DNA of 32,127 nucleotides from a virus, in the IMG/VR virus record IMGVR_UViG_3300030389_001143, positions 1-32,127 of that record, one strand, 5' to 3'. A model generated the notes under the pieces. It was given only the letters and a program-made list of their open reading frames with translations. It did no database searches and had not been told where the DNA came from. Shown here piece by piece: positions 194 through 32,127 of the stretch (positions are counted from its first letter, which is position 1; the number at the start of each line of letters is the position of its first letter). Made by a program: the position numbers and the translations under genes.

Positions 194-222
194 TATACAA
201 TTTTTTTTAGAAATATTATAAT
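194..222 (+). promoter_or_regulatory. Putative promoter of the lone rightward gene
   Basis: TATACA (194-199), a 17-base spacer containing a T8 tract, and a perfect TATAAT (217-222) lie about 32 bases before the ATG at 255. AAGGG at 243-247 can serve as Shine-Dalgarno. The local sequence is very AT-rich, so chance matches are possible. The rest of 55-254 holds only this and the divergent leftward promoter. Confidence 0.5.
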
Positions 223-254
223 TATTAGTTAATATTTACTATAAGGGAAAAGCT

Positions 255-530
255 ATGTCATATTTAGATGATGTGATTAATGATATAAATTTGCAAAAAA
301 ATAAAAATGTGAGAGAAGCACAAAAATCTTATGTAGAGCATTTTGGTTATCAGTACTACAAAGACTTACTTACATATGAAATATTTGATGATCCAAATGC
401 TTTTGATATCCAAAGTGTAGAAAATTCATATGTGAAACTATTAAATAGATCAGTTGAGAAAGATAGCAGAGTTGATCCAGAGGATATAAGCAACAAAGTA
501 TTTGGTATTCCAAAAACTGCAAAGCAGTAA
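255..530 (+). CDS. Small acidic protein of unknown function, convergent with the MuF-metallopeptidase gene
   Basis: This 91-residue protein has no family I recognise, no membrane segment and no signal peptide. It is mostly helical in appearance, with acidic patches and several tyrosines. It is the only rightward gene in a 9.4-kb stretch of leftward genes. It has its own putative promoter (194-222) and a Shine-Dalgarno sequence AAGGG, and its stop at 528-530 almost touches the stop of the opposing gene at 532. An autonomous small gene on the opposite strand is the pattern of a phage 'moron' gene. Immunity or inhibition of the neighbouring metallopeptidase is one possible role, but that is position-based inference only. 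Confidence 0.7.
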   Translation: MSYLDDVINDINLQKNKNVREAQKSYVEHFGYQYYKDLLTYEIFDDPNAFDIQSVENSYVKLLNRSVEKDSRVDPEDISNKVFGIPKTAKQ

Positions 531-531
531 A

Positions 532-2487
532 TTAAATTACTCTATTTTCAAAATCTTCAAACTCTAAAATGTCGTCTATGTATTCATCAAAACTTTTTTT
601 AGTGTTTGGTGCTAATTCTTCCATCTTTTTTCTAAATAATTCAGATTGTGGAGAAGCCGATAGGGACAGATATTCAGCAAATGCTTCTGTTGAATTATCG
701 CTTGTTACAACACGATTGCCAACCCTAACTCTAGCTCCTTCCCTTCTATAGTAGCTATTACTGTGTCCGTAACCAAAAGCATTTGTAGTTATAGCACCCA
801 TATAATCTGCAAGATGATCTATGTCTGTTCTTGCGTTTACAGTAACTTCTTTTTTTGCTTTATCTCTGGTTATCACAAATGTTTTTAATGAATAAAATAT
901 ACCATTACCGCCATGATGGACTGCGTGTGTGTCAATAAGACCAATTTGATTTGCAAATCTATAATTTACTGCATTAAGAAATGAGGTCATTCTTATTGCT
1001 CTATCTGCTCTGTCAGATATTTTATCAAAGTTTAAAAGTTGTTTAATTTCATCTTTTTTAAAGAAAACCCCATCTTGGAATATGTCATCTAAAAAAATCT
1101 CCACATCTTTTTTTGTTTGTAATTTAGTGAATGTATTTGTAGCTTCATCATAACCATATTTGAGCTTGTACTCTTCTTCAAAGTTTCTTAAAGCACCAAG
1201 TCCATTCTTAGGTGGCAATTCGTGTGCATATTTGTAAGTACCATCTTTAATGTTTTGCGAAACTCTTTTCACATCTTTTACTATTTCTTCTGCGTATATA
1301 AGTGATCCATAGTCTATGGTGTTTCTTTCATCTGCTTTCAGAATAGTATTTATTTTTTTACCTATCTTATTGTCATCTCTAAGACTTTTTCTAACTGTTT
1401 TTCTATCTACAAAATGTCCGTATTCATGTACCCATACTGCATGTTTTGAATAACCTGTTCTTGTTTTTTTCATGTTTATTAAATTAACATTGTCATAATA
1501 ACAACCGCTATTAGTTACAGTTACATTGACTGGCGGAAATTTTGCTGGTATCTGCTTATATTTTTCTGGGCTATCGTTCCATGCTTCTTTATGAAACTCA
1601 AGTTCTGTCTTTGTCGTTCCACCAAATCCAACAAAAGTTTGAGGAACTGTTGTGCTAACAGCTACAGTTGCAACCGCTTCTGGCACTATTGGACTATCTG
1701 GCTTCGGTATATCTCCAATAACTTCATCTTCTGAATCATAGTATAAGGTGAAACATCTACAATTAATTATATTTAAAGCACCACCTTTTGAATCTCCAGT
1801 ATAATCCATTATTTTTTCTGTTGTGCCACCACCAGCAATAGGTGTAAACACCTTGAACTTTTCATCTTGCTTTACTACAGTTCCATTCATAGCCTTATGC
1901 CAACCTCTCGTTCTATCATCAAAAGCACTATTCCATTCTTTCACTCCATCACGAAACCCAAGTGTTTTGGAAATCTCATTATTACCATAACTCATAGCCA
2001 TATGAGTTTCAGTTCTAGCGATCATAGTTGCTCTGTACGGCTTAAATCCATTGTTCTGCCTTATTTCTTTAGCAATTACAGGTATAGATTCTCCTTCCGC
2101 TATACCTTTTTTTATTGATCTTTTAATGTTTTGTCTTGTAGTTTCAGAGATTTGACTTACCTTAGAAGCTGTATTTTCATCTATATATTTGTCTACAATT
2201 TTATCAATATTGCCTTCTGCTTTCTCCTCTCTTTGCTTTCTTATTCTTTGATTTGTGGCAGTAATGACTGACCTGTAATGACTTGACAGTATCTTGTAAA
2301 TATCATTAGAAAAATCTTCTAAAAAGAAATAGTACATATCTTCATATTTAAGATATTCTTGCTCGGCTGATCTGGCAGTTTTTCTAAACAGTTTTTTTAG
2401 TTTTGCGTTTAGGCTTTTTGATAAGTTGAGATATAGTTTGAGTTGTTGCTTATAGTCCTTGCGTCTATTGATCCTAATTTTTGCCAT
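532..2487 (-). CDS. MuF-type head morphogenesis protein fused to a zinc-metallopeptidase (zincin) domain
   Basis: The 651-residue protein starts with basic, coiled helices. It then has a Phage_Mu_F/SPP1 gp7-like region at about 100-255, with the family signature running from 'ARTETHMA' to 'NCRCFTLY'. MuF proteins are minor head proteins that travel with the virion DNA. After a Pro/Val/Thr-rich linker (about 255-285), the C-terminal half carries HEYGH at 354-358, a classic HExxH zinc site. It also has a downstream 'STEAFAEYL' segment (E601 or E605) that could supply the third metal ligand. MuF fused to enzymatic C-termini is a known polymorphic-toxin architecture, so this half may be an injected effector or a virion maturation protease. 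The ATG follows the endolysin stop directly (TAAATG). The fusion is confident; the effector role is inference. Confidence 0.87.
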   Translation of the reverse strand: MAKIRINRRKDYKQQLKLYLNLSKSLNAKLKKLFRKTARSAEQEYLKYEDMYYFFLEDFSNDIYKILSSHYRSVITATNQRIRKQREEKAEGNIDKIVDKYIDENTASKVSQISETTRQNIKRSIKKGIAEGESIPVIAKEIRQNNGFKPYRATMIARTETHMAMSYGNNEISKTLGFRDGVKEWNSAFDDRTRGWHKAMNGTVVKQDEKFKVFTPIAGGGTTEKIMDYTGDSKGGALNIINCRCFTLYYDSEDEVIGDIPKPDSPIVPEAVATVAVSTTVPQTFVGFGGTTKTELEFHKEAWNDSPEKYKQIPAKFPPVNVTVTNSGCYYDNVNLINMKKTRTGYSKHAVWVHEYGHFVDRKTVRKSLRDDNKIGKKINTILKADERNTIDYGSLIYAEEIVKDVKRVSQNIKDGTYKYAHELPPKNGLGALRNFEEEYKLKYGYDEATNTFTKLQTKKDVEIFLDDIFQDGVFFKKDEIKQLLNFDKISDRADRAIRMTSFLNAVNYRFANQIGLIDTHAVHHGGNGIFYSLKTFVITRDKAKKEVTVNARTDIDHLADYMGAITTNAFGYGHSNSYYRREGARVRVGNRVVTSDNSTEAFAEYLSLSASPQSELFRKKMEELAPNTKKSFDEYIDDILEFEDFENRVI

Positions 2488-2889
2488 TTAGTCAATTATT
2501 TCAAAGTGAACTGCGTCTATAAAGCTCATATCCCTATTCAGTTTGAAATCTCCTGTTACCCAGCTTCCACCCCATCTTATTTTAATATTTAAGATTTCGC
2601 AAACCTCTCCTATCACACCAGCAACAGCTTCATAATATTCTAGCTCCCAAGTAACTTTGCCATTATCGTAGCACACAATATCAACAGCTCTGCCTTGACA
2701 ATGCAAAGATTTAGCTCCAACCTTACTCAATCCCTCTGCTTTTAGCTGTTCTGCCCTCTCAAGGCTTCTCATTCCTTCTGTGATGCCAAAATCAATAGGT
2801 GTTAGTTTGATAGCTTCGGTCATTACTAACTTCAAATCTGGGTGTACTGTATTTAGTTTTTCTAGTGATCCACTTCCAAATTTAAACAT
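2488..2889 (-). CDS. M15-family peptidase, probable endolysin
   Basis: This 133-residue protein matches the Peptidase_M15_4 / L-alanyl-D-glutamate endopeptidase type. The zinc and catalytic residues are visible as S61-x-H63-C-x-G-x-A-x-D70 and, near the C-terminus, 'DAVHFEI' with H128. Enzymes of this family cut peptidoglycan peptide cross-bridges. The protein has no signal sequence, so it would need the holin to reach the wall. It sits between portal and MuF genes, about 11 kb from the holin cluster. This is unusual for a lysis enzyme and leaves open a virion-associated role. The start lies 3 bases after the portal stop. Confidence 0.88.
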   Translation of the reverse strand: MFKFGSGSLEKLNTVHPDLKLVMTEAIKLTPIDFGITEGMRSLERAEQLKAEGLSKVGAKSLHCQGRAVDIVCYDNGKVTWELEYYEAVAGVIGEVCEILNIKIRWGGSWVTGDFKLNRDMSFIDAVHFEIID

Positions 2890-2892
2890 GGC

Positions 2893-5097
2893 TTAGTCCT
2901 TTGATGATAATGGGTGATCTCTCGGTAACAAATCTAAATCAAATTTGCCACTTCTAAATTTACCTGTTCTGACTGCAACAAGAAAAGCATTTACTCTAGC
3001 ATAAGCCCATTGGTCTTCTGACCTTACACTTGGTCTTACACTTGCTGGGTTAGTCCTGTAAGCTCCAACCCCTCTTTTAAATACAGCTCCCAACATTCTA
3101 ACATTTACTCTTTTACCTTTTTGGTCGCCATATTTATCATTGTGATCCTTAACCTTTTTTCTTAATCCTTTCTCAACAGTTGCAGATAAACCAGCTACTT
3201 TGGTTTCCATATCATCATATGATTTTTCTCGTTCTGCCATTATCTGATTTCTTTTCTGCCTTGACCAACTAAATCCAGAATCACCACCCCACAATGACCA
3301 AGCGATCCTTCCAGCACTAGGATAACCTTTTTGGCTTGGCTTGAATCCTTGACCTTGCTTGTCTACTTCGTGTCTAGAAAAGAACGAGAACATTCTAAGA
3401 ACTGTGTCTGGCGACATTCTCTCCCCACTTACTATTTGATTTGCCCGAGCAACACCCACTTGAGTGCCACCCCTATTAAACTTTTTTCGCCAGTCCAGCC
3501 CTCTCCTAGCTTCTTCTTTCATGCCTTCGGTGGCTGTTAAATCAAGATCAGATAAAGCCTTTTCATCTACTCCTATTGTATCGTGATAGGCTTCGTGGCT
3601 TCTACATGGCATAAAAACAGTTTTGCCATCTTCTGTTTGGTGTGTATGACTTCCCTCACACCCAATTACTTTTGCCCTCTCTAGTGCTTCTTGCTCTGTG
3701 GTAAACACATCTTCTTCCAACATCTCCTTAGTTCTTTTCTTTTTTTTCTTCTTTTTTGGCTTCATATATTTTTCTTCTAAATCATCACCATAAATTTCTT
3801 CCCATTGATCCTCATAAAACTTAGATTCATCTTCATCTTCATCTGGCTGAACAGGTGGAGTATCGTCTACCTCGCCCAATGGAAATAAGTTTGAAGGAAC
3901 TAATAAGCTATCGCCACCATCTATAGGCTCAAGCCCTAGTCTTTCTCTGGCTTCGTTTCTGGTCAATATGCCTTGCTGTACACCTTGACTGACATTGGAA
4001 AAGATTTGTTTTCTTTTTTCTGCCATAGCTGGGATAGAATCAATGTCATATCTAATACTGATATTGCCGTCATAAAGCGGTGATAAGTATTCGTTTAGGT
4101 CTGATTCTAGTCGTTGTAATAAAGGTATAATGGTTTCTTCATACAATGATAATCTAGCTTCTGCCACATTAGCATATGTCTGATCTGCAATACCTACTAA
4201 TTGAGCTGGTACACCAAAACACAACGCAATCTCTCTGGCTGACATATTCATTAGTTCTAAAAAGTCCATGTCTTTTGGATTTAAGCCCATCTGAACGTAA
4301 TCAAAATCTCCTTCTAACAGCATTGGTCTACCAGCATTTGTGCTAGAAGAAAATCTTGTTTCCAAGTCCTGTAGCAACATAGCTCGTTGATCGTCTGATA
4401 ATGTTGCAGAAGCTCCTGTTTCATCTGTGGGTTGAAACTTCAACATAGCAGAAGGAGTACAGCCATTCTTTAACAATCCTACATTATGCAGTCCAGCCAA
4501 GTTGTGTTGATCAATGTTATAAGCAGAAGCAACTATTGGAGATAATCCGTAGAAATCATCTAATGGATTCCATAACTTTATGTGTTTAAGCTGTGAATAA
4601 CCTGTTAAAGGATTTACTTCATATGAGTTTACAACCTTGTTATCTATCTTATATTGATAGGCTTCTGGGATCATTGAAGTTCCTGTCTTAATAAAAATCC
4701 TGTCTGGTCTTAGCAAATATAATTCTGTGGGAACAGATGTTTCTTTATCTTTAATAATATAAGAGTTACCAGATATCAACAGAAAACTTATTAATGAATG
4801 AAAAAACTCTACACCAGATTGTAAAGGGTTTGGTCTTTCCAGCAAAGATATTAATGGGTGGCTGTCTAGCTCGTTCTCTCCAGAAAATACTTTGATCTTG
4901 ACTGCACTTGCGTTGTTGGCAATCATAGACACAGATTTATATACTATTGCGTTCTCTTGATAACCCTCTTTTGCGTAATCAACAAATTTTCTATTGTTCT
5001 TGCCTTGATATGCATGTACCTTATTAAAAAGCACTTTTGGAGCTTCTTTGGTCTGTATCTGCTCTGTTTGTTTTTTGAATCTATCAAATAATCCCAT
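2893..5097 (-). CDS. Portal protein with a large C-terminal extension
   Basis: Residues 1 to about 410 are an HK97-like phage portal: an N-terminal 'LFDRFKK', the 'PLISLLERPNP' region, 'HIKLWNPLDDFYGLSP' and 'ALCFGVPAQLVG'. The portal forms the dodecameric DNA channel at the head vertex. An acidic stretch and a lysine run (446-454) then lead into an extra domain to residue 734. This domain has a Cys/His cluster (C480, H484, H486, C498, H501) and a block around 525-600 with 'RGGTQVGVARA' and 'RMFSFFSRHEVDKQG'. I have seen this block in other phage proteins without a firm function. Typical portals are about 420-500 residues, so the protein is long. The lysine run is encoded by a slippery A-rich tract (3739-3745). 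Confidence 0.88.
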   Translation of the reverse strand: MGLFDRFKKQTEQIQTKEAPKVLFNKVHAYQGKNNRKFVDYAKEGYQENAIVYKSVSMIANNASAVKIKVFSGENELDSHPLISLLERPNPLQSGVEFFHSLISFLLISGNSYIIKDKETSVPTELYLLRPDRIFIKTGTSMIPEAYQYKIDNKVVNSYEVNPLTGYSQLKHIKLWNPLDDFYGLSPIVASAYNIDQHNLAGLHNVGLLKNGCTPSAMLKFQPTDETGASATLSDDQRAMLLQDLETRFSSSTNAGRPMLLEGDFDYVQMGLNPKDMDFLELMNMSAREIALCFGVPAQLVGIADQTYANVAEARLSLYEETIIPLLQRLESDLNEYLSPLYDGNISIRYDIDSIPAMAEKRKQIFSNVSQGVQQGILTRNEARERLGLEPIDGGDSLLVPSNLFPLGEVDDTPPVQPDEDEDESKFYEDQWEEIYGDDLEEKYMKPKKKKKKKRTKEMLEEDVFTTEQEALERAKVIGCEGSHTHQTEDGKTVFMPCRSHEAYHDTIGVDEKALSDLDLTATEGMKEEARRGLDWRKKFNRGGTQVGVARANQIVSGERMSPDTVLRMFSFFSRHEVDKQGQGFKPSQKGYPSAGRIAWSLWGGDSGFSWSRQKRNQIMAEREKSYDDMETKVAGLSATVEKGLRKKVKDHNDKYGDQKGKRVNVRMLGAVFKRGVGAYRTNPASVRPSVRSEDQWAYARVNAFLVAVRTGKFRSGKFDLDLLPRDHPLSSKD
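3739..3745 (-). other. Possible -1 slippery heptamer A AAA AAG inside the portal gene
   Basis: On the minus strand the zero-frame codons read AAA AAA AAG, giving the heptamer A AAA AAG, the motif used in E. coli dnaX. A -1 slip would read GAA AAG AAC TAA and stop at 3728-3730, yielding a portal of about 456 residues. This is the usual portal size, cut off exactly before the C-terminal extension. I see no strong downstream hairpin, and lysine-rich tracts are common in AT-rich genomes. Use of the site is unproven. Confidence 0.35.
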
Positions 5098-5107
5098 TAT
5101 ATAATCC

Positions 5108-6394
5108 TCAACTGATTCTAAAAATTGCTTTTCCAGAGTTCATTAATGATGTTACAGCCCATACAAGTGCGTCTAGTCTATCTGGGCTTTTTGCTGTATC
5201 TGGGGTGTAACTGCACATCTGATCTTCTAACTCCTTAAAATAACCAACATGGTGGATTTTACCTTGTTCGTAGAGTGCTGATACTGGCTCACAACGCAGA
5301 ATCTTGCCACGACTAGCTCTGACTGAAGAATAAGGTACATTCACATCTTGCACTCGTAAAAGTTTTTCAATTAAATCCCCACCATTGTTGACTTCACAAA
5401 CTATTCTATCTGCGTCAAACTTATAATACAACTCTATTGCTCGTTTTATCCAAACATCTGGACTAAATACACCAGATTTATCTTCTAATATGTAGAAATG
5501 ATTATCAATACCTCTACCAGCAACGATCAGCCCTGTTTCATCAGATGTACTTTTGTTTGAGGTAACTGCTGGATCGACCGCAATAACAATTCTTTGCATG
5601 TCTGGCGTTACTTCAATTCTGGTTTGCTCAATATTAGTAGCATGAAATAATGCACCCTCTACATCTTCTAATATCTCCGCATAAAGCTCCTGTCGCCCTA
5701 GTCTTGTTCCTTCGTATCTTTCTTTAAGCATTTTGATTGCAGATGGAGCAAGGTTATCTATGTTCTCAAAAGTATTTCCCTTGATTACTTTTGTGTCTGA
5801 TCTAACAGCTAGTTCTTTGATTAATTCTGTTGGTCTGGGAGTTGTGGTAATAATACACTTTGGGCTTTCTCCTAGTCGTAGTGCCATCATCAAGTTGTCA
5901 AATGTTTCTCTATATCGCCAAGAAGCTAATTCATCACACCAAACTCTATGAAACTGCACACCTCGCAATCGGTCTGGTTCTATAGCTGGAAAGCCTATAA
6001 TTTTACTACCATTGTAGAAAGTTATTTCGCTTTCTGATTTATTATATCCAGATTCAGATAATAGGTCTTTGTCCAAGACAGACAATATTCCAGATTCCCC
6101 TTGAAAGCATATTTTTCGCAAATCTCCATGAGTAGGTGCGATCACACCACAAATTACATTAGGATTTAGTAAGCAGTATTGGATTATATCCATAGCTCCG
6201 CATTTAGTCTTTCCCCAACCCCTACCAGCTAGGAATAATTGAATATTGTAAACATCTTCGTCAACAATGACTTGATTTTTTCTTGCTTTGGTATACCAAT
6301 CAGTTAAGAGTATTGTCGCTATCTTTTTCTGACAGTTTAGCTCTTTGAATGTCTGCGATAAGTTCTTTGAACTTGTCATCTTGCTCTGTGCCAT
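5108..6394 (-). CDS. terL: Terminase large subunit
   Basis: This 428-residue protein is the packaging motor ATPase and nuclease. Walker A is 'GRGWGKT' (57-63), Walker B ends at D154-E155 in 'VWCDELAS', and a coupling-type TTTPRPTE follows at 183-190. The RNase H-like nuclease domain shows D274 in 'IAVDPAVT' and a late 'PDRLDALVWA' with D405/D408. It overlaps terS by 95 bases. I kept this start because GGAG lies 7 bases upstream of the ATG at 6394, inside terS. The nuclease would cut concatemers, and terminal redundancy would fit headful packaging, though that cannot be settled here. Confidence 0.95.
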   Translation of the reverse strand: MAQSKMTSSKNLSQTFKELNCQKKIATILLTDWYTKARKNQVIVDEDVYNIQLFLAGRGWGKTKCGAMDIIQYCLLNPNVICGVIAPTHGDLRKICFQGESGILSVLDKDLLSESGYNKSESEITFYNGSKIIGFPAIEPDRLRGVQFHRVWCDELASWRYRETFDNLMMALRLGESPKCIITTTPRPTELIKELAVRSDTKVIKGNTFENIDNLAPSAIKMLKERYEGTRLGRQELYAEILEDVEGALFHATNIEQTRIEVTPDMQRIVIAVDPAVTSNKSTSDETGLIVAGRGIDNHFYILEDKSGVFSPDVWIKRAIELYYKFDADRIVCEVNNGGDLIEKLLRVQDVNVPYSSVRASRGKILRCEPVSALYEQGKIHHVGYFKELEDQMCSYTPDTAKSPDRLDALVWAVTSLMNSGKAIFRIS

Positions 6395-6991: not shown

Positions 6992-7816
6992 TTAAACTCC
7001 ACACATACCTTCACATTCATCATCAAAACTAAAACTTAACTGACTATCTTCACTATCAAAATCTATCTGATCTAAAGGTATTCTGTCTGCATGTAGAAAA
7101 ACTGGATCGGTATTATCTGACCTCGTATTCATAAGGTTGATCCCTCTTACATGATTATCCATATCAACAAGTTCTTTCCACAATACTTTGTCTTGTTTAA
7201 GCTGTTTCCATCTCTTATTTGAATTATAAGGGCAAAAAATACAGGAACTTCTTGGCGGTGTTGGATAGTTATTTTTATTATACCACTCTATACATTGACC
7301 TCTGCTCATATTCTGCTCTATTAAAGGATAGGTGTTAATGACATATTTGAGTTTATTCTCCTTTACTCTCTGCATTTCATCTGTAGAAATTCCGATCAAT
7401 AGCTCTACTTTCCATTTCTTTAAGTCTACTCTTTCTCCTTTCTTATAGCCCATGATCTCTCTTACCTTTTGCTCAACAGGAAAAATTTTGTATTGATAAG
7501 TGCATTGTCGTCTTAACATACCTCTGTTTCCTGTTTTTTCATTCAATGAAAAGAAAGGTATGGCTGGAAAGTAATGATTCTTTTCCTTAGTAGCTTTCAT
7601 AATATCTTTTTTTAGATTTCCCCATTTTACAACATGGACAGGATAAGATAGTTCTTTTTTTAACCATTCCAGATGTCTATAGACTTCATCTGGCTCTCCA
7701 CCTGTGTCAGCAAAAATAGCACAATTAACCATTGGTAATTGTCGTTTTTCAATCATTAAAGCCAATGCTGTACTTTGAACTCCAGCACCTAACGACAATA
7801 TTCTTAATGTTTTCAT
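6992..7816 (-). CDS. PP-loop ATPase of the PAPS-reductase-like family
   Basis: This 274-residue protein opens with 'RILSLGAGVQSTALAL', the PP-loop form found in phage adenine-nucleotide alpha-hydrolase or phosphoadenosine phosphosulfate reductase-like proteins. It continues with 'CAIFADTGGEPDEVY', 'RRQCTYQYKI' and a 'CIFCPYNSNKRW' CxxC motif, and ends with a Cys-rich tail, 'CEGMCGV'. Family members activate substrates with ATP and act in sulfur transfer or base/RNA modification. The paired cysteines suggest metal or Fe-S binding. It lies between helicase and terminase genes, so a role in nucleotide or DNA modification is more likely than sulfate assimilation, but this is inference. GGAGCA precedes the ATG. 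Confidence 0.83.
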   Translation of the reverse strand: MKTLRILSLGAGVQSTALALMIEKRQLPMVNCAIFADTGGEPDEVYRHLEWLKKELSYPVHVVKWGNLKKDIMKATKEKNHYFPAIPFFSLNEKTGNRGMLRRQCTYQYKIFPVEQKVREIMGYKKGERVDLKKWKVELLIGISTDEMQRVKENKLKYVINTYPLIEQNMSRGQCIEWYNKNNYPTPPRSSCIFCPYNSNKRWKQLKQDKVLWKELVDMDNHVRGINLMNTRSDNTDPVFLHADRIPLDQIDFDSEDSQLSFSFDDECEGMCGV

Positions 7817-29229: not shown

Positions 29230-30450
29230 TTACGCAGAAATGTTTTGTAGTCTAATAGCTTCCGCTAAAACTACAGCACCACCAACTCTACGTCTGGCGA
29301 CATAACGTATATTTCCACTTGTTGCTTGAGAAAAAGGATCACGCATAACGGATAAATTAACTCTGTCAACAATAGTGTAAGCTCTTGAGAAATCTCCATA
29401 AGCTATAGGCTTAGCTGAACCAGCTACATCTGCCATATCTTCGGCTAAAATGTATGGCTTTCCTAAAATAGTATTAGGTGCACCACCAACATAACTCATG
29501 CTGTTCACAAATATTTTCTGACCTTCGGTATCTTCTAATTTCAATACAGCTCCAAATGTACCTCTGTTCATCACAAAAGTTGCATTTGCCATATAGTCAG
29601 ATTTAATATCGTACATAAGATCAAGTAAACCATTTGCAGTCAAAGCAGTTCCACTTCCAGAATTAGTTGAACTAACTCCAGCAGATGAATCTGTGAATCC
29701 TTGCGGTCTACCAACACTATTTCCAGAAACAAATGCAGTACCTTCTGCTTTCGCAAACTGTGTACCAAATTCTTCTGACATTTCAGCTTCTAAATCAAAA
29801 GCAGAATCTTCTAACATGGCTTGTGAAATATCAACCAAAGCATATAGCTCATGTGCGTCTATTTGCATAAGACCTGTTTGATAGCCTGTTGTTTCTGACC
29901 TAGTGCCTGTTTCTGCAACAAAAGAAGCAGAGAATTGACCTGTTCTTTTAGGAATCTCAATACCCCTATTTGATGTTGTTCTAACTCTAGCAATAGAACG
30001 AATAGGAGAAATCTCTGTAACACCTTTAATTAAGTCTGCTACATATTCTGCTGGAGCATAGAAACCGCCTAATGTATCGTCTGATTCATATAGAGCTTTC
30101 CTTTCTATTTCGTCCATGTTCTCCTTGCCAACTCTTAACATTGATCCAAATGCTTTGATTTGTAAATCAACATCTTTCGTGCTGTTGCCTGTTTCTGGTC
30201 TAGCTAAAACTGTTTCTAAACTCTCAATTTTAGCTTGAGCTTCTGCTAAGCTCTTTTCTTGTAACTCTAGTTTCTGTCTGGTTTCTGCCATTTTTGACAT
30301 GTCATCAGCCATCTTATCAACTTTTTCTACAAGTAGAGGATCAGCAGAGCCTTTCTTTTCAATCTCTTCAAGACGTTTTGAGTTTTCACCTTTAAATTCT
30401 TCAAAAGCTGTACCCAGATTGTCTATTACAGATTTCATTTCATCACTCAT
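29230..30450 (-). CDS. Major capsid protein, HK97 fold
   Basis: This 406-residue protein has an N-terminal coiled coil of about 100 residues ('FKGENSKRLEEIEKKG ... KLELQEKSLAEAQAKIESLETVL'), typical of the scaffold-like delta domain removed by the prohead protease. The capsid domain follows, with 'GGFYAPAEYVADLIKGVTEISPIRSIARVRTT', 'AEMSEEFGTQFAKAEGTAFVSGN', 'RGTFGAVLKLEDTEGQKIFV' and 'GNIRYVARRRVGGAVVLAEAIRLQ'. Cleavage would be near residue 100-110. It lies immediately downstream of the protease. Confidence 0.95.
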   Translation of the reverse strand: MSDEMKSVIDNLGTAFEEFKGENSKRLEEIEKKGSADPLLVEKVDKMADDMSKMAETRQKLELQEKSLAEAQAKIESLETVLARPETGNSTKDVDLQIKAFGSMLRVGKENMDEIERKALYESDDTLGGFYAPAEYVADLIKGVTEISPIRSIARVRTTSNRGIEIPKRTGQFSASFVAETGTRSETTGYQTGLMQIDAHELYALVDISQAMLEDSAFDLEAEMSEEFGTQFAKAEGTAFVSGNSVGRPQGFTDSSAGVSSTNSGSGTALTANGLLDLMYDIKSDYMANATFVMNRGTFGAVLKLEDTEGQKIFVNSMSYVGGAPNTILGKPYILAEDMADVAGSAKPIAYGDFSRAYTIVDRVNLSVMRDPFSQATSGNIRYVARRRVGGAVVLAEAIRLQNISA

Positions 30451-30461
30451 AATAAACTCCC

Positions 30462-31130
30462 TTAATGTTTAATCGTTTCAATTAAATGCTTAATACTATC
30501 CACAACATCTCGCTGTTCATTTAACTCTGGGTTAAATGATTTATATAATATATTGGCACTTTGTTTTGCAACAGAACTAGACATTAAGCCCACATCACGC
30601 AAGTAATGTTCTATCTCTCTTACATTCATTTCAGCTAATTTTACTTTGGTAATTTTAGCTTTTGGATTCATTGGAAATGTAACCATTGACACTTCCATCA
30701 AATCTAAATTTGTGATCGTTCTTTTCTTTAGTTTTTCGCTGTATTTGTAATCTTCGGGCTTGAGCTTATAACCAATAGACATAGAATCTAAAGCTCCCAT
30801 CTTCATTAGCTCATATACTTCTCTACCTTTTTGTGTACCCATAGCTAATCTACCTTTGATTTTAAGACCTCTCTTATCTTCCATAAGGCTATCCACCACA
30901 CCAATAGGCTCATCTGTCTTATGCTGGTATAATAGCTTGATTTGACGTGGCTTCTTATCGTAGATTGATTTAGCAAATGCACCTTGCTTAATAACATCAT
31001 TTCCTAAATCTTTATTGTTGAATACAGAAGCATAGCCTTCAAAGCTCCCATCTTCTTCTGCTTCAATTTGCTTATATTCACATTCAAGGTCTAAAACATC
31101 ATTTACTATTTCTGAATGTTCATCTGGCAT
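30462..31130 (-). CDS. HK97-type prohead protease
   Basis: This 222-residue serine protease of the U35 family has 'FEGYASVFNNKDLGNDVIKQGAF', H70 in 'LLYQHKTDEPIG', S116/S118 in 'ALDSMSIGYKL', and 'LMEVSMVTFPMNPKAKI'. It removes the N-terminal domain of the capsid protein during maturation. It is the first gene of the late leftward unit, behind a putative promoter and right after a terminator. Confidence 0.92.
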   Translation of the reverse strand: MPDEHSEIVNDVLDLECEYKQIEAEEDGSFEGYASVFNNKDLGNDVIKQGAFAKSIYDKKPRQIKLLYQHKTDEPIGVVDSLMEDKRGLKIKGRLAMGTQKGREVYELMKMGALDSMSIGYKLKPEDYKYSEKLKKRTITNLDLMEVSMVTFPMNPKAKITKVKLAEMNVREIEHYLRDVGLMSSSVAKQSANILYKSFNPELNEQRDVVDSIKHLIETIKH

Positions 31131-31743: not shown

Positions 31744-32037
31744 TTATTTTATTTCTTCTCCATGTTTGTTGACAGGTGTTTTTGTGAAACCTATGTCTGC
31801 AACATAATATGTAACACCATTAATTTTTATGTAATCACCAACAGATGTAGAACGATACTCTTTGCCAAGTGCTTCTTTTGACCAACTTTCATCAATATTT
31901 TGTGAACTATAGTAAACTCTCTCTGCTATATAACTATCACTTTTATCGCCATATTCTTTATCTGAAAACTCCCAGTTTGCAACATGAATTGGTTTATCTT
32001 CAAATGCTGTATGATATAACTCTACTTTTCTATCCAT
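31744..32037 (-). CDS. First early leftward protein, YodL-like candidate
   Basis: This 97-residue protein has 'ELYHTAFEDKPIHVANWEF' and 'YRSTSVGDYIKINGVTYYVADIGFTK'. The latter resembles the 'S.SVGDvi...g..yyV...GF' core of YodL-like domains, found in early proteins of phages and plasmids with unknown function. It is the first gene behind the shared promoter-leader cassette, so expression should be early and strong. The 5' 18 codons are repeated at 1-54. Confidence 0.72.
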   Translation of the reverse strand: MDRKVELYHTAFEDKPIHVANWEFSDKEYGDKSDSYIAERVYYSSQNIDESWSKEALGKEYRSTSVGDYIKINGVTYYVADIGFTKTPVNKHGEEIK

Positions 32038-32127
32038 TTTCTTGCTCCTATTTAAGTTTTTATATAAGTCGTTATTAACTTATATATATACTCTATAATA
32101 TTATGGTATATATGTCAACATTATATA
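31984..32127. repeat. Right copy of 144-bp terminal direct repeat
   Basis: This is the second copy of bases 1-144. Here the leader reads CTTAAATAGGAG on the minus strand, which matches the same leader at 9597-9613 and 12850-12866. The left copy reads CTTAAACAGGAG, so the right copy carries the consensus form. Joining the two copies gives a circle of about 31983 bp. Confidence 0.93.
32090..32118 (-). promoter_or_regulatory. Leftward early promoter (right copy)
   Basis: This is the same promoter as at 107-135: TTGACA (32113-32118), 17 bases and TAGAGT (32090-32095) on the minus strand. The leader (32045-32061) reads AAAAACTTAAATAGGAG, identical to the leaders at 9597-9613 and 12850-12866, ahead of the ATG at 32037. 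Confidence 0.75.

What the first reader, a model, noticed from the sequence alone, without database searches (positions are those of the whole stretch)
532..2487. MuF head protein fused to a zincin metallopeptidase: candidate injected effector
The MuF region (about 100-255) is joined by a Pro/Val/Thr linker to a domain with HEYGH (354-358) and a downstream acidic ligand candidate (E601/E605). MuF domains are known carriers of polymorphic toxins. In a small phage with few accessory genes, a 370-residue protease carried in the virion suggests a host-directed effector or an unusual maturation protease.
Basis: partly seen in the sequence, partly recalled or inferred. Interest (0 to 1): 0.68.

Follow-up and report, generated by a model that had tools for sequence, protein, structure and literature searches.

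The report
Phage head protease with matching partner
A small marine phage carries, fused to a protein of its DNA-filled head, a predicted zinc protease that is swapped or missing in sister phages and always travels with its own small neighbouring gene, probably an inhibitor, which suggests an injected, polymorphic toxin-like effector in phages that show no sign of lysogeny genes.

Summary
The ORF is on the minus strand (532-2487): MuF (119-246), Pro/Val/Thr linker, then a 366-residue domain with HEYGH 354-358. Across ten relatives (most only 23-42% identical), H354, E355, H358 and E601 are invariant; E605 is not. Profile and fold comparisons both point weakly to the anthrax-lethal-factor type of zincin.

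The main new result concerns the neighbours. Of 48 IMG/VR loci sharing this MuF domain, 32 have MuF alone. Fifteen have a zincin, of one of two sequence types (A as here, or B). Types swap between near-identical MuF domains. Behind every complete zincin version (14/14, window included), and behind none of the MuF-only ones (0/30 informative), lies a small ORF of a type-specific family. In the window it is 255-530 (+), convergent, under purifying selection, predicted all-helical. Similar pairs occur in isolated SAR11 phages (HTVC026P gp30/gp31, Kolga gp59/gp60), unrecognised there.

Best reading: a capsid-delivered protease effector with a cognate inhibitor or immunity protein, i.e. a new variant of MuF polymorphic toxins (Jamet 2017), here in phages without a detectable integrase. 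A maturation-protease role is disfavoured. Proteolysis, injection and inhibition are all untested.

The parts
532..2487 (-). MuF-zincin fusion gene, 651 aa
   Evidence: ORF and translation
1723..2487 (-). MuF head-protein domain, residues 1-255 (Pfam core 119-246)
   Evidence: PF04233 E 8.7e-15; PHROG head morphogenesis E 7e-40; 48 related loci
1636..1722 (-). Pro/Val/Thr-rich linker, residues 256-284; MuF-only relatives end at about residue 257, at its start
535..1635 (-). type A zincin-like domain, residues 285-651
   Evidence: invariant HEYxH...E in ten relatives; profile and fold best match lethal factor
1414..1428 (-). HEYGH, residues 354-358 (predicted Zn ligands H354 and H358, base E355)
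1405..1407 (-). D361, invariant, three residues after HEYGH (HExxHxxD)
748..774 (-). GYGHSNSYY, residues 572-580; G572, G574, H575, Y579 and Y580 invariant, active-site candidates
685..687 (-). E601 of STEAFAEY, predicted third Zn ligand
   Evidence: invariant in ten relatives; E605 is not
255..530 (+). type A partner gene, 91 aa, acidic (pI 4.9), all-helical; convergent, stop 1 nt from the MuF-zincin stop; candidate cognate inhibitor or immunity protein
   Evidence: homologues behind every complete type A zincin of this phage group and in the L060/L061 group; 0/30 informative MuF-only loci; dN/dS about 0.1; AF2 pLDDT 87.5
194..254 (+). promoter-like TATACA-17-TATAAT and AAGGGA ribosome-binding site before the partner gene
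   Evidence: promoter-like sites here are no more frequent than in shuffles
2488..2889 (-). M15-type endolysin between portal and MuF
   Evidence: PF13539 E 7e-6, PHROG endolysin
2893..5097 (-). portal protein
   Evidence: PF04860 E 9e-74
5108..6394 (-). terminase large subunit
   Evidence: PHROG
30462..31130 (-). separate S78 prohead protease
   Evidence: PF04586 E 3e-38
29230..30450 (-). major capsid protein
   Evidence: PF05065 E 9e-67

Best explanation
The gene makes a MuF minor head protein with a zinc-dependent protease as its C-terminal cargo. The MuF part ties it to the portal region inside the capsid, so a few copies enter the next cell with the DNA, where the zincin cuts a host protein (inferred). 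The convergent 91-aa gene makes a cognate inhibitor (immunity protein) that binds the zincin and keeps it silent in the producing cell during assembly. Because it lies outside the late operon, it may also be made from incoming DNA to limit the time the protease acts. Zincin plus partner form one cassette that is exchanged between phages at the 3' end of the MuF gene. Shown: the anatomy, conservation of the metal site, exchange, type-matched pairing and purifying selection. Inferred: metal binding, proteolysis, packaging, injection, host target and inhibition.
For: Metal-site residues are invariant across ten divergent homologues. The profile's best PDB matches are lethal factor (E 0.022-0.44), and the low-confidence model's best fold match is also lethal factor (Z 5.8 against 2.8 for the best unrelated row). 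On one MuF scaffold three states occur (none, type A, type B), with at least 6 state changes on the MuF tree. L011 (B) and L013 (A) share 93% MuF identity. L030 pairs an L010-like MuF (97%) with an L015-like zincin (82%). Partner: 14/14 complete zincin loci against 0/30 informative MuF-only ones, and always of the type matching the zincin. Type B: 61/76 loci by iterated HMM, most often with the partner start overlapping the zincin stop by 4 nt. Zincin and partner identities correlate (Spearman 0.66 for A, 0.74 for B), MuF and partner do not clearly (0.36, -0.17). Isolated SAR11 phages carry a type B pair. Precedent: MuF toxins with neighbouring immunity genes, among them Bxa and Apk2, shown to inhibit bacteria (PMC11699363).
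Against: No toxicity, protease or binding data exist. The structure model has pLDDT 51, and plain Foldseek gave no significant match. Type A has no Pfam metallopeptidase hit. Distant type A members L064 and L065 have no visible partner. No orphan partner was found, though the scans were insensitive. The convergent orientation is unlike the usual toxin-then-immunity operon.
Confidence: 0.68

Rival explanations
1. The zincin is a maturation or self-processing protease: it cuts MuF or other head proteins during assembly, and the partner is a chaperone or timing inhibitor. It need not act in the host.
For: MPTase domains in phage-head polyvalent proteins are proposed to self-process, as in P1 DdrB (PMC5512222). 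The type B partner is usually translationally coupled to the zincin, which also suits a chaperone.
Against: 32 related loci have MuF alone; a separate S78 prohead protease is present; swapping of unrelated zincins on one MuF scaffold does not suit a fixed virion substrate; in the window's group the partner is convergent, not co-translated.
Confidence: 0.12
2. An injected protease that acts against host defences or for host takeover without being toxic; the partner protects virion proteins in the producing cell.
For: A phage that means to replicate gains little from killing its host at entry. No integrase in the window and most relatives, so a lysis-lysogeny role is less likely. Polymorphism fits an arms race with varied host targets.
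Against: No defence target is known; strict type-matched partners are typical of toxins harmful to the producer.
Confidence: 0.15
3. The C-terminal domain is structural and the HExxH is a relic with no catalysis.
For: The model is poor, and type A has no recognised family.
Against: Active-site residues are the invariant ones while the rest diverges to 23-29% identity; dN/dS about 0.24 between near relatives; MuF-only forms exist.
Confidence: 0.05

Closest known systems
MuF polymorphic toxins (Jamet et al. 2017, PMC5576092)
   Same: MuF N-terminus, optional C-terminal toxin domain, short MuF relatives, small ORF beside the toxin versions, gene next to portal and terminase; 20% of 191 reported MuF toxins had a metallopeptidase domain
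   Different: That study found toxin versions only in temperate phages, mainly of Firmicutes. Here they are marine phages without a detectable integrase; the partner gene is convergent; and the type A zincin and both partner families lack significant Pfam, PHROG, NCBIfam or PADLOC models in the searches made
Characterised MuF toxins Bxa (ADP-ribosyltransferase) and Apk2 (alarmone synthetase), PMC11699363
   Same: C-terminal enzyme on MuF in a head gene region, neutralised by neighbouring immunity proteins
   Different: Different enzyme; prophage-encoded; shown experimentally, which this is not
Anthrax-lethal-factor-like metallopeptidases (ATLF PF07737, peptidase family M34; Tox-ALF of Zhang 2012, PMC3482391)
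   Same: HExxH plus downstream Glu; best profile and fold match
   Different: Type A does not hit PF07737 and type B stays below its cut-off; about 240 residues between HExxH and Glu; Tox-ALF was listed with PVC and T2SS delivery and Imm-SuFu, not MuF
MPTase domains of polyvalent proteins (Iyer et al. 2017, PMC5512222)
   Same: Zincin-like domains in proteins sent in by phages and plasmids; one common clade has Asp three residues after HExxH, as here (D361)
   Different: Those proteins are usually large multi-domain chains; a matched partner gene is not described in the passages read; clade membership was not tested
SAR11 phage genes HTVC026P gp30/gp31 and Kolga gp59/gp60
   Same: Head-region protein with a zincin and an overlapping small partner gene
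   Different: Type B zincin; partner codirectional; annotated only as hypothetical or head morphogenesis

Membership tests
MuF polymorphic toxins | N-terminal MuF domain | tested here: met
   PF04233 55.9 bits, cut-off 29.6
MuF polymorphic toxins | C-terminal domain that varies or is absent on the same MuF scaffold | tested here: met
   none / A / B states, at least 6 changes on the MuF tree
MuF polymorphic toxins | small ORF beside toxin versions but not beside short MuF genes | tested here: met
   14/14 against 0/30; convergent in the window's group
MuF polymorphic toxins | gene in the packaging region near portal and terminase | tested here: met
MuF polymorphic toxins | carried by temperate phages (reported correlate, not part of the definition) | tested here: inconclusive
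   No tyrosine or serine integrase over the cut-off in the window or most relatives nor tyrosine integrase in HTVC026P or Kolga; IMG/VR records may be incomplete
MuF polymorphic toxins | toxicity neutralised by the partner | not testable with these tools
   needs expression experiments
Zincin metallopeptidase (gluzincin-type HExxH...E) | invariant HExxH and downstream Glu | tested here: met
   H354, E355, H358, E601 in ten relatives
Zincin metallopeptidase (gluzincin-type HExxH...E) | zincin fold | tested here: inconclusive
   pLDDT 51; best match lethal factor Z 5.8, further zincins at Z 2.1-2.2; Foldseek E above 1
Zincin metallopeptidase (gluzincin-type HExxH...E) | metal-dependent proteolysis | not testable with these tools
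   needs biochemistry
Lethal-factor family (M34, ATLF PF07737) | score above the Pfam cut-off | tested here: not met
   type A: no hit; type B: at most 24.8 bits, cut-off 27.4
Polyvalent-protein MPTase | HExxHxxD signature of one phage-type clade | tested here: met
   D361 invariant against the description in PMC5512222
Polyvalent-protein MPTase | placement in one of the 12 published clades | not tested
   the published alignment was not at hand

The most novel reading that the evidence does not exclude
An exchangeable protease-plus-inhibitor cassette used by strictly lytic marine phages (including SAR11 phages): the head delivers a protease at entry, and an independently transcribed, convergent inhibitor gene times its action, so that the pair works as an infection timer or a weapon between phages rather than in lysogeny.
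Probability: 0.25. Interest if true: 0.85.

Novelty: new variant of a known kind. Interest (0 to 1): 0.62.

Why it matters
MuF toxins have been tied to temperate phages and lysogeny. Finding type-matched protease/partner pairs, present or absent among otherwise similar phages with no detectable integrase, and similar pairs in cultured phages of SAR11, the most abundant marine bacteria, would give these toxins a role in lytic infection. Sister phages with and without the cassette, and isolates in culture, make the question directly testable. Two unnamed small protein families become candidate metalloprotease inhibitors.

Tried and rejected
Reading on the + strand: no ORF. Single-sequence PDB search of the C-terminus: nothing relevant. 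Type A against isolated phages: no match. hhalign of type A against type B: only 20 columns at the HExGH helix, so common ancestry of A and B is not shown. Fold searches with the partner model: nothing convincing. Plain Foldseek with the zincin model: no significant match. Search for orphan partners: none found; the two extra hits L156 and L157 lie in a capsid-region gene and are spurious; the type B partner alignment was too divergent to scan with. The weak 'resolvase' match in the window at 30229-30465 is inside the capsid gene. The genome-wide scan for type A gave only a Nitrosomonas MAG. Promoter and terminator scans around the partner are not above shuffles. PADLOC: no hit. Paper searches found no description of this zincin/partner pair, but the library holds only open papers and supplementary tables could not be read.

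Full report
WHAT IS THERE. The window is a 32,127-base virus record, GC 34%, with no terminal repeat. The finding's ORF lies on the minus strand and encodes 651 aa. Pfam gives Phage_Mu_F at residues 119-246, and PHROGs a head-morphogenesis family at E 7e-40. The gene follows TerS, TerL, portal and an M15 endolysin. A separate S78 prohead protease and the capsid lie at the other end of the record. In relative L008 the order is TerL, portal, endolysin, MuF, small ORFs, prohead protease, capsid, so the window is probably a nearly complete genome opened just behind the MuF locus (inference).

THE METAL SITE. HEYGH is at 354-358. Alone this is modest (1.6% of shuffles contain HExxH; 0.02% contain the hydrophobic-x-HExGH form). 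Ten relatives, most at 23-42% identity, keep H354, E355, Y356, H358, D361, D561, A565, G572, G574, H575, Y579, Y580, T600, E601 and A604, while E605 is Asn in most. This is the pattern of an HExxH...E zincin with E601 as third ligand. A profile of these ten finds lethal factor as best PDB match (E 0.022 to 0.44). The AlphaFold model from five sequences is poor (pLDDT 51), yet its best match in the second-look aligner is again lethal factor (Z 5.8, rmsd 7.0, 153 aligned; next unrelated row 2.8; ERAP2 and ACE2, also zincins, at 2.1-2.2). Plain Foldseek gives nothing. Two weak and partly independent lines agree; membership in the lethal-factor family is not claimed, since the Pfam cut-off is not met.

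THE NATURAL EXPERIMENT. A scan with the MuF part found 48 usable loci in IMG/VR. In 32 the ORF stops at 252-260 residues: MuF alone. In 15 it carries a zincin; one is cut off. The zincins fall into two clusters without mutual BLAST hits: A (the window, L002, L003, L013, L014, L016, L054) and B (L006, L010, L011, L012, L015, L030, L032, L037, L038). Every C-terminal extension seen in this group is a zincin. On a MuF tree of 25 representatives the three states need at least 6 changes. L011 (B) and L013 (A) share 93% of their MuF residues; L030 has a 97% L010-like MuF but an 82% L015-like zincin. So the cassette is swapped, gained or lost at the 3' end of the MuF gene, and head assembly does not need it.

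THE PARTNER GENE. Directly behind each zincin lies a small ORF. In the window it is 255-530 on the + strand, 1 nt from the MuF-zincin stop, convergent, with a good ribosome-binding site. Its homologues stand behind all complete type A zincins of the group and, now in the same direction and overlapping the toxin stop, in another phage group (L060, L061, L062) and, weakly (HMM E 7e-4), in a Nitrosomonas MAG. Type B zincins have a different small family, also convergent in this group and codirectional elsewhere. By tblastn, 14 of 14 complete zincin loci (window included) have the partner of their own type and 0 of 30 MuF-only loci with enough flank have either (32 MuF-only loci in all, two with under 70 nt of flank). 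Loci are partly near-copies, so no P-value is given. In the wider type B family 61 of 76 loci match the iterated partner HMM, and nearly all the rest have an unmatched small ORF at the same place. Zincin and partner identities rise and fall together while MuF and partner identities do not clearly (pairs not independent). Window and L003 copies show dN/dS about 0.11 for the partner and 0.24 for the zincin. The partner is predicted all-helical with pLDDT 87.5 and acidic.

LIFESTYLE AND HOSTS. No tyrosine integrase was found in the window or in 16 of 17 related records (only in L136's record), and no serine recombinase over the cut-off in 13 of 14. The isolated SAR11 phages HTVC026P and Kolga carry a type B zincin plus partner and also lack a tyrosine integrase. 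The Kolga paper reports infection dynamics suggesting persistence in most isolates despite a lack of lysogeny genes (PMC8163748). The host of the window phage is unknown; its terminase is nearest to those of alphaproteobacterial and other environmental phages.

MECHANISM. I commit to a capsid-delivered protease effector with a cognate inhibitor (0.68). Shown: metal-site conservation, optionality, exchange, type-matched pairing, selection. Inferred: packaging through MuF (by analogy with SPP1 gp7, present at 1-2 copies per capsid, and the detection of a MuF toxin in the StB12 phage by proteomics), injection, proteolysis, inhibition. The convergent arrangement means the partner is not part of the late transcript, so early synthesis is possible but unproven.

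KNOWN OR NEW. MuF toxins, including ones with metallopeptidase domains and small downstream ORFs, were described in 2017, and two other MuF toxins have been tested. This is therefore a new variant: a type A zincin and partner families without significant database models, a convergent partner, and carriers without a detectable integrase, with relatives of the cassette in cultured SAR11 phages.

Noticed in passing
L065:1637-4225: 862-aa phage protein that joins MuF, a stretch resembling an ADP-ribosyltransferase fold (by eye) and a type A zincin in one chain.
   Followed up: partly
L148:3074-5072 (HTVC026P gp30/gp31), L150:1298-3353 (Kolga gp59/gp60): Cultured SAR11 phages carry type B zincin plus overlapping partner, annotated only as hypothetical or head morphogenesis proteins.
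   Followed up: partly
2893-5097: The 734-aa portal protein has a long C-terminal extension with DUF3721 and weak DUF5824 matches, unlike a usual HK97-type portal.
   Followed up: no
6992-7816: Gene with a weak PAPS-reductase-domain match between terminase and helicase genes.
   Followed up: no
L113, L116, L126, L136, L139 (behind the zincin stop): Type B zincins followed by small ORFs that do not match the partner HMM: possibly further partner families.
   Followed up: partly
31744-32037: 97-aa ORF with a short match to a mechanosensitive-channel beta domain, probably chance.
   Followed up: no
1-254 and 32038-32127: The record seems cut between the partner gene and the prohead protease module, as judged from gene order in L008; probably a nearly complete permuted genome.
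   Followed up: partly
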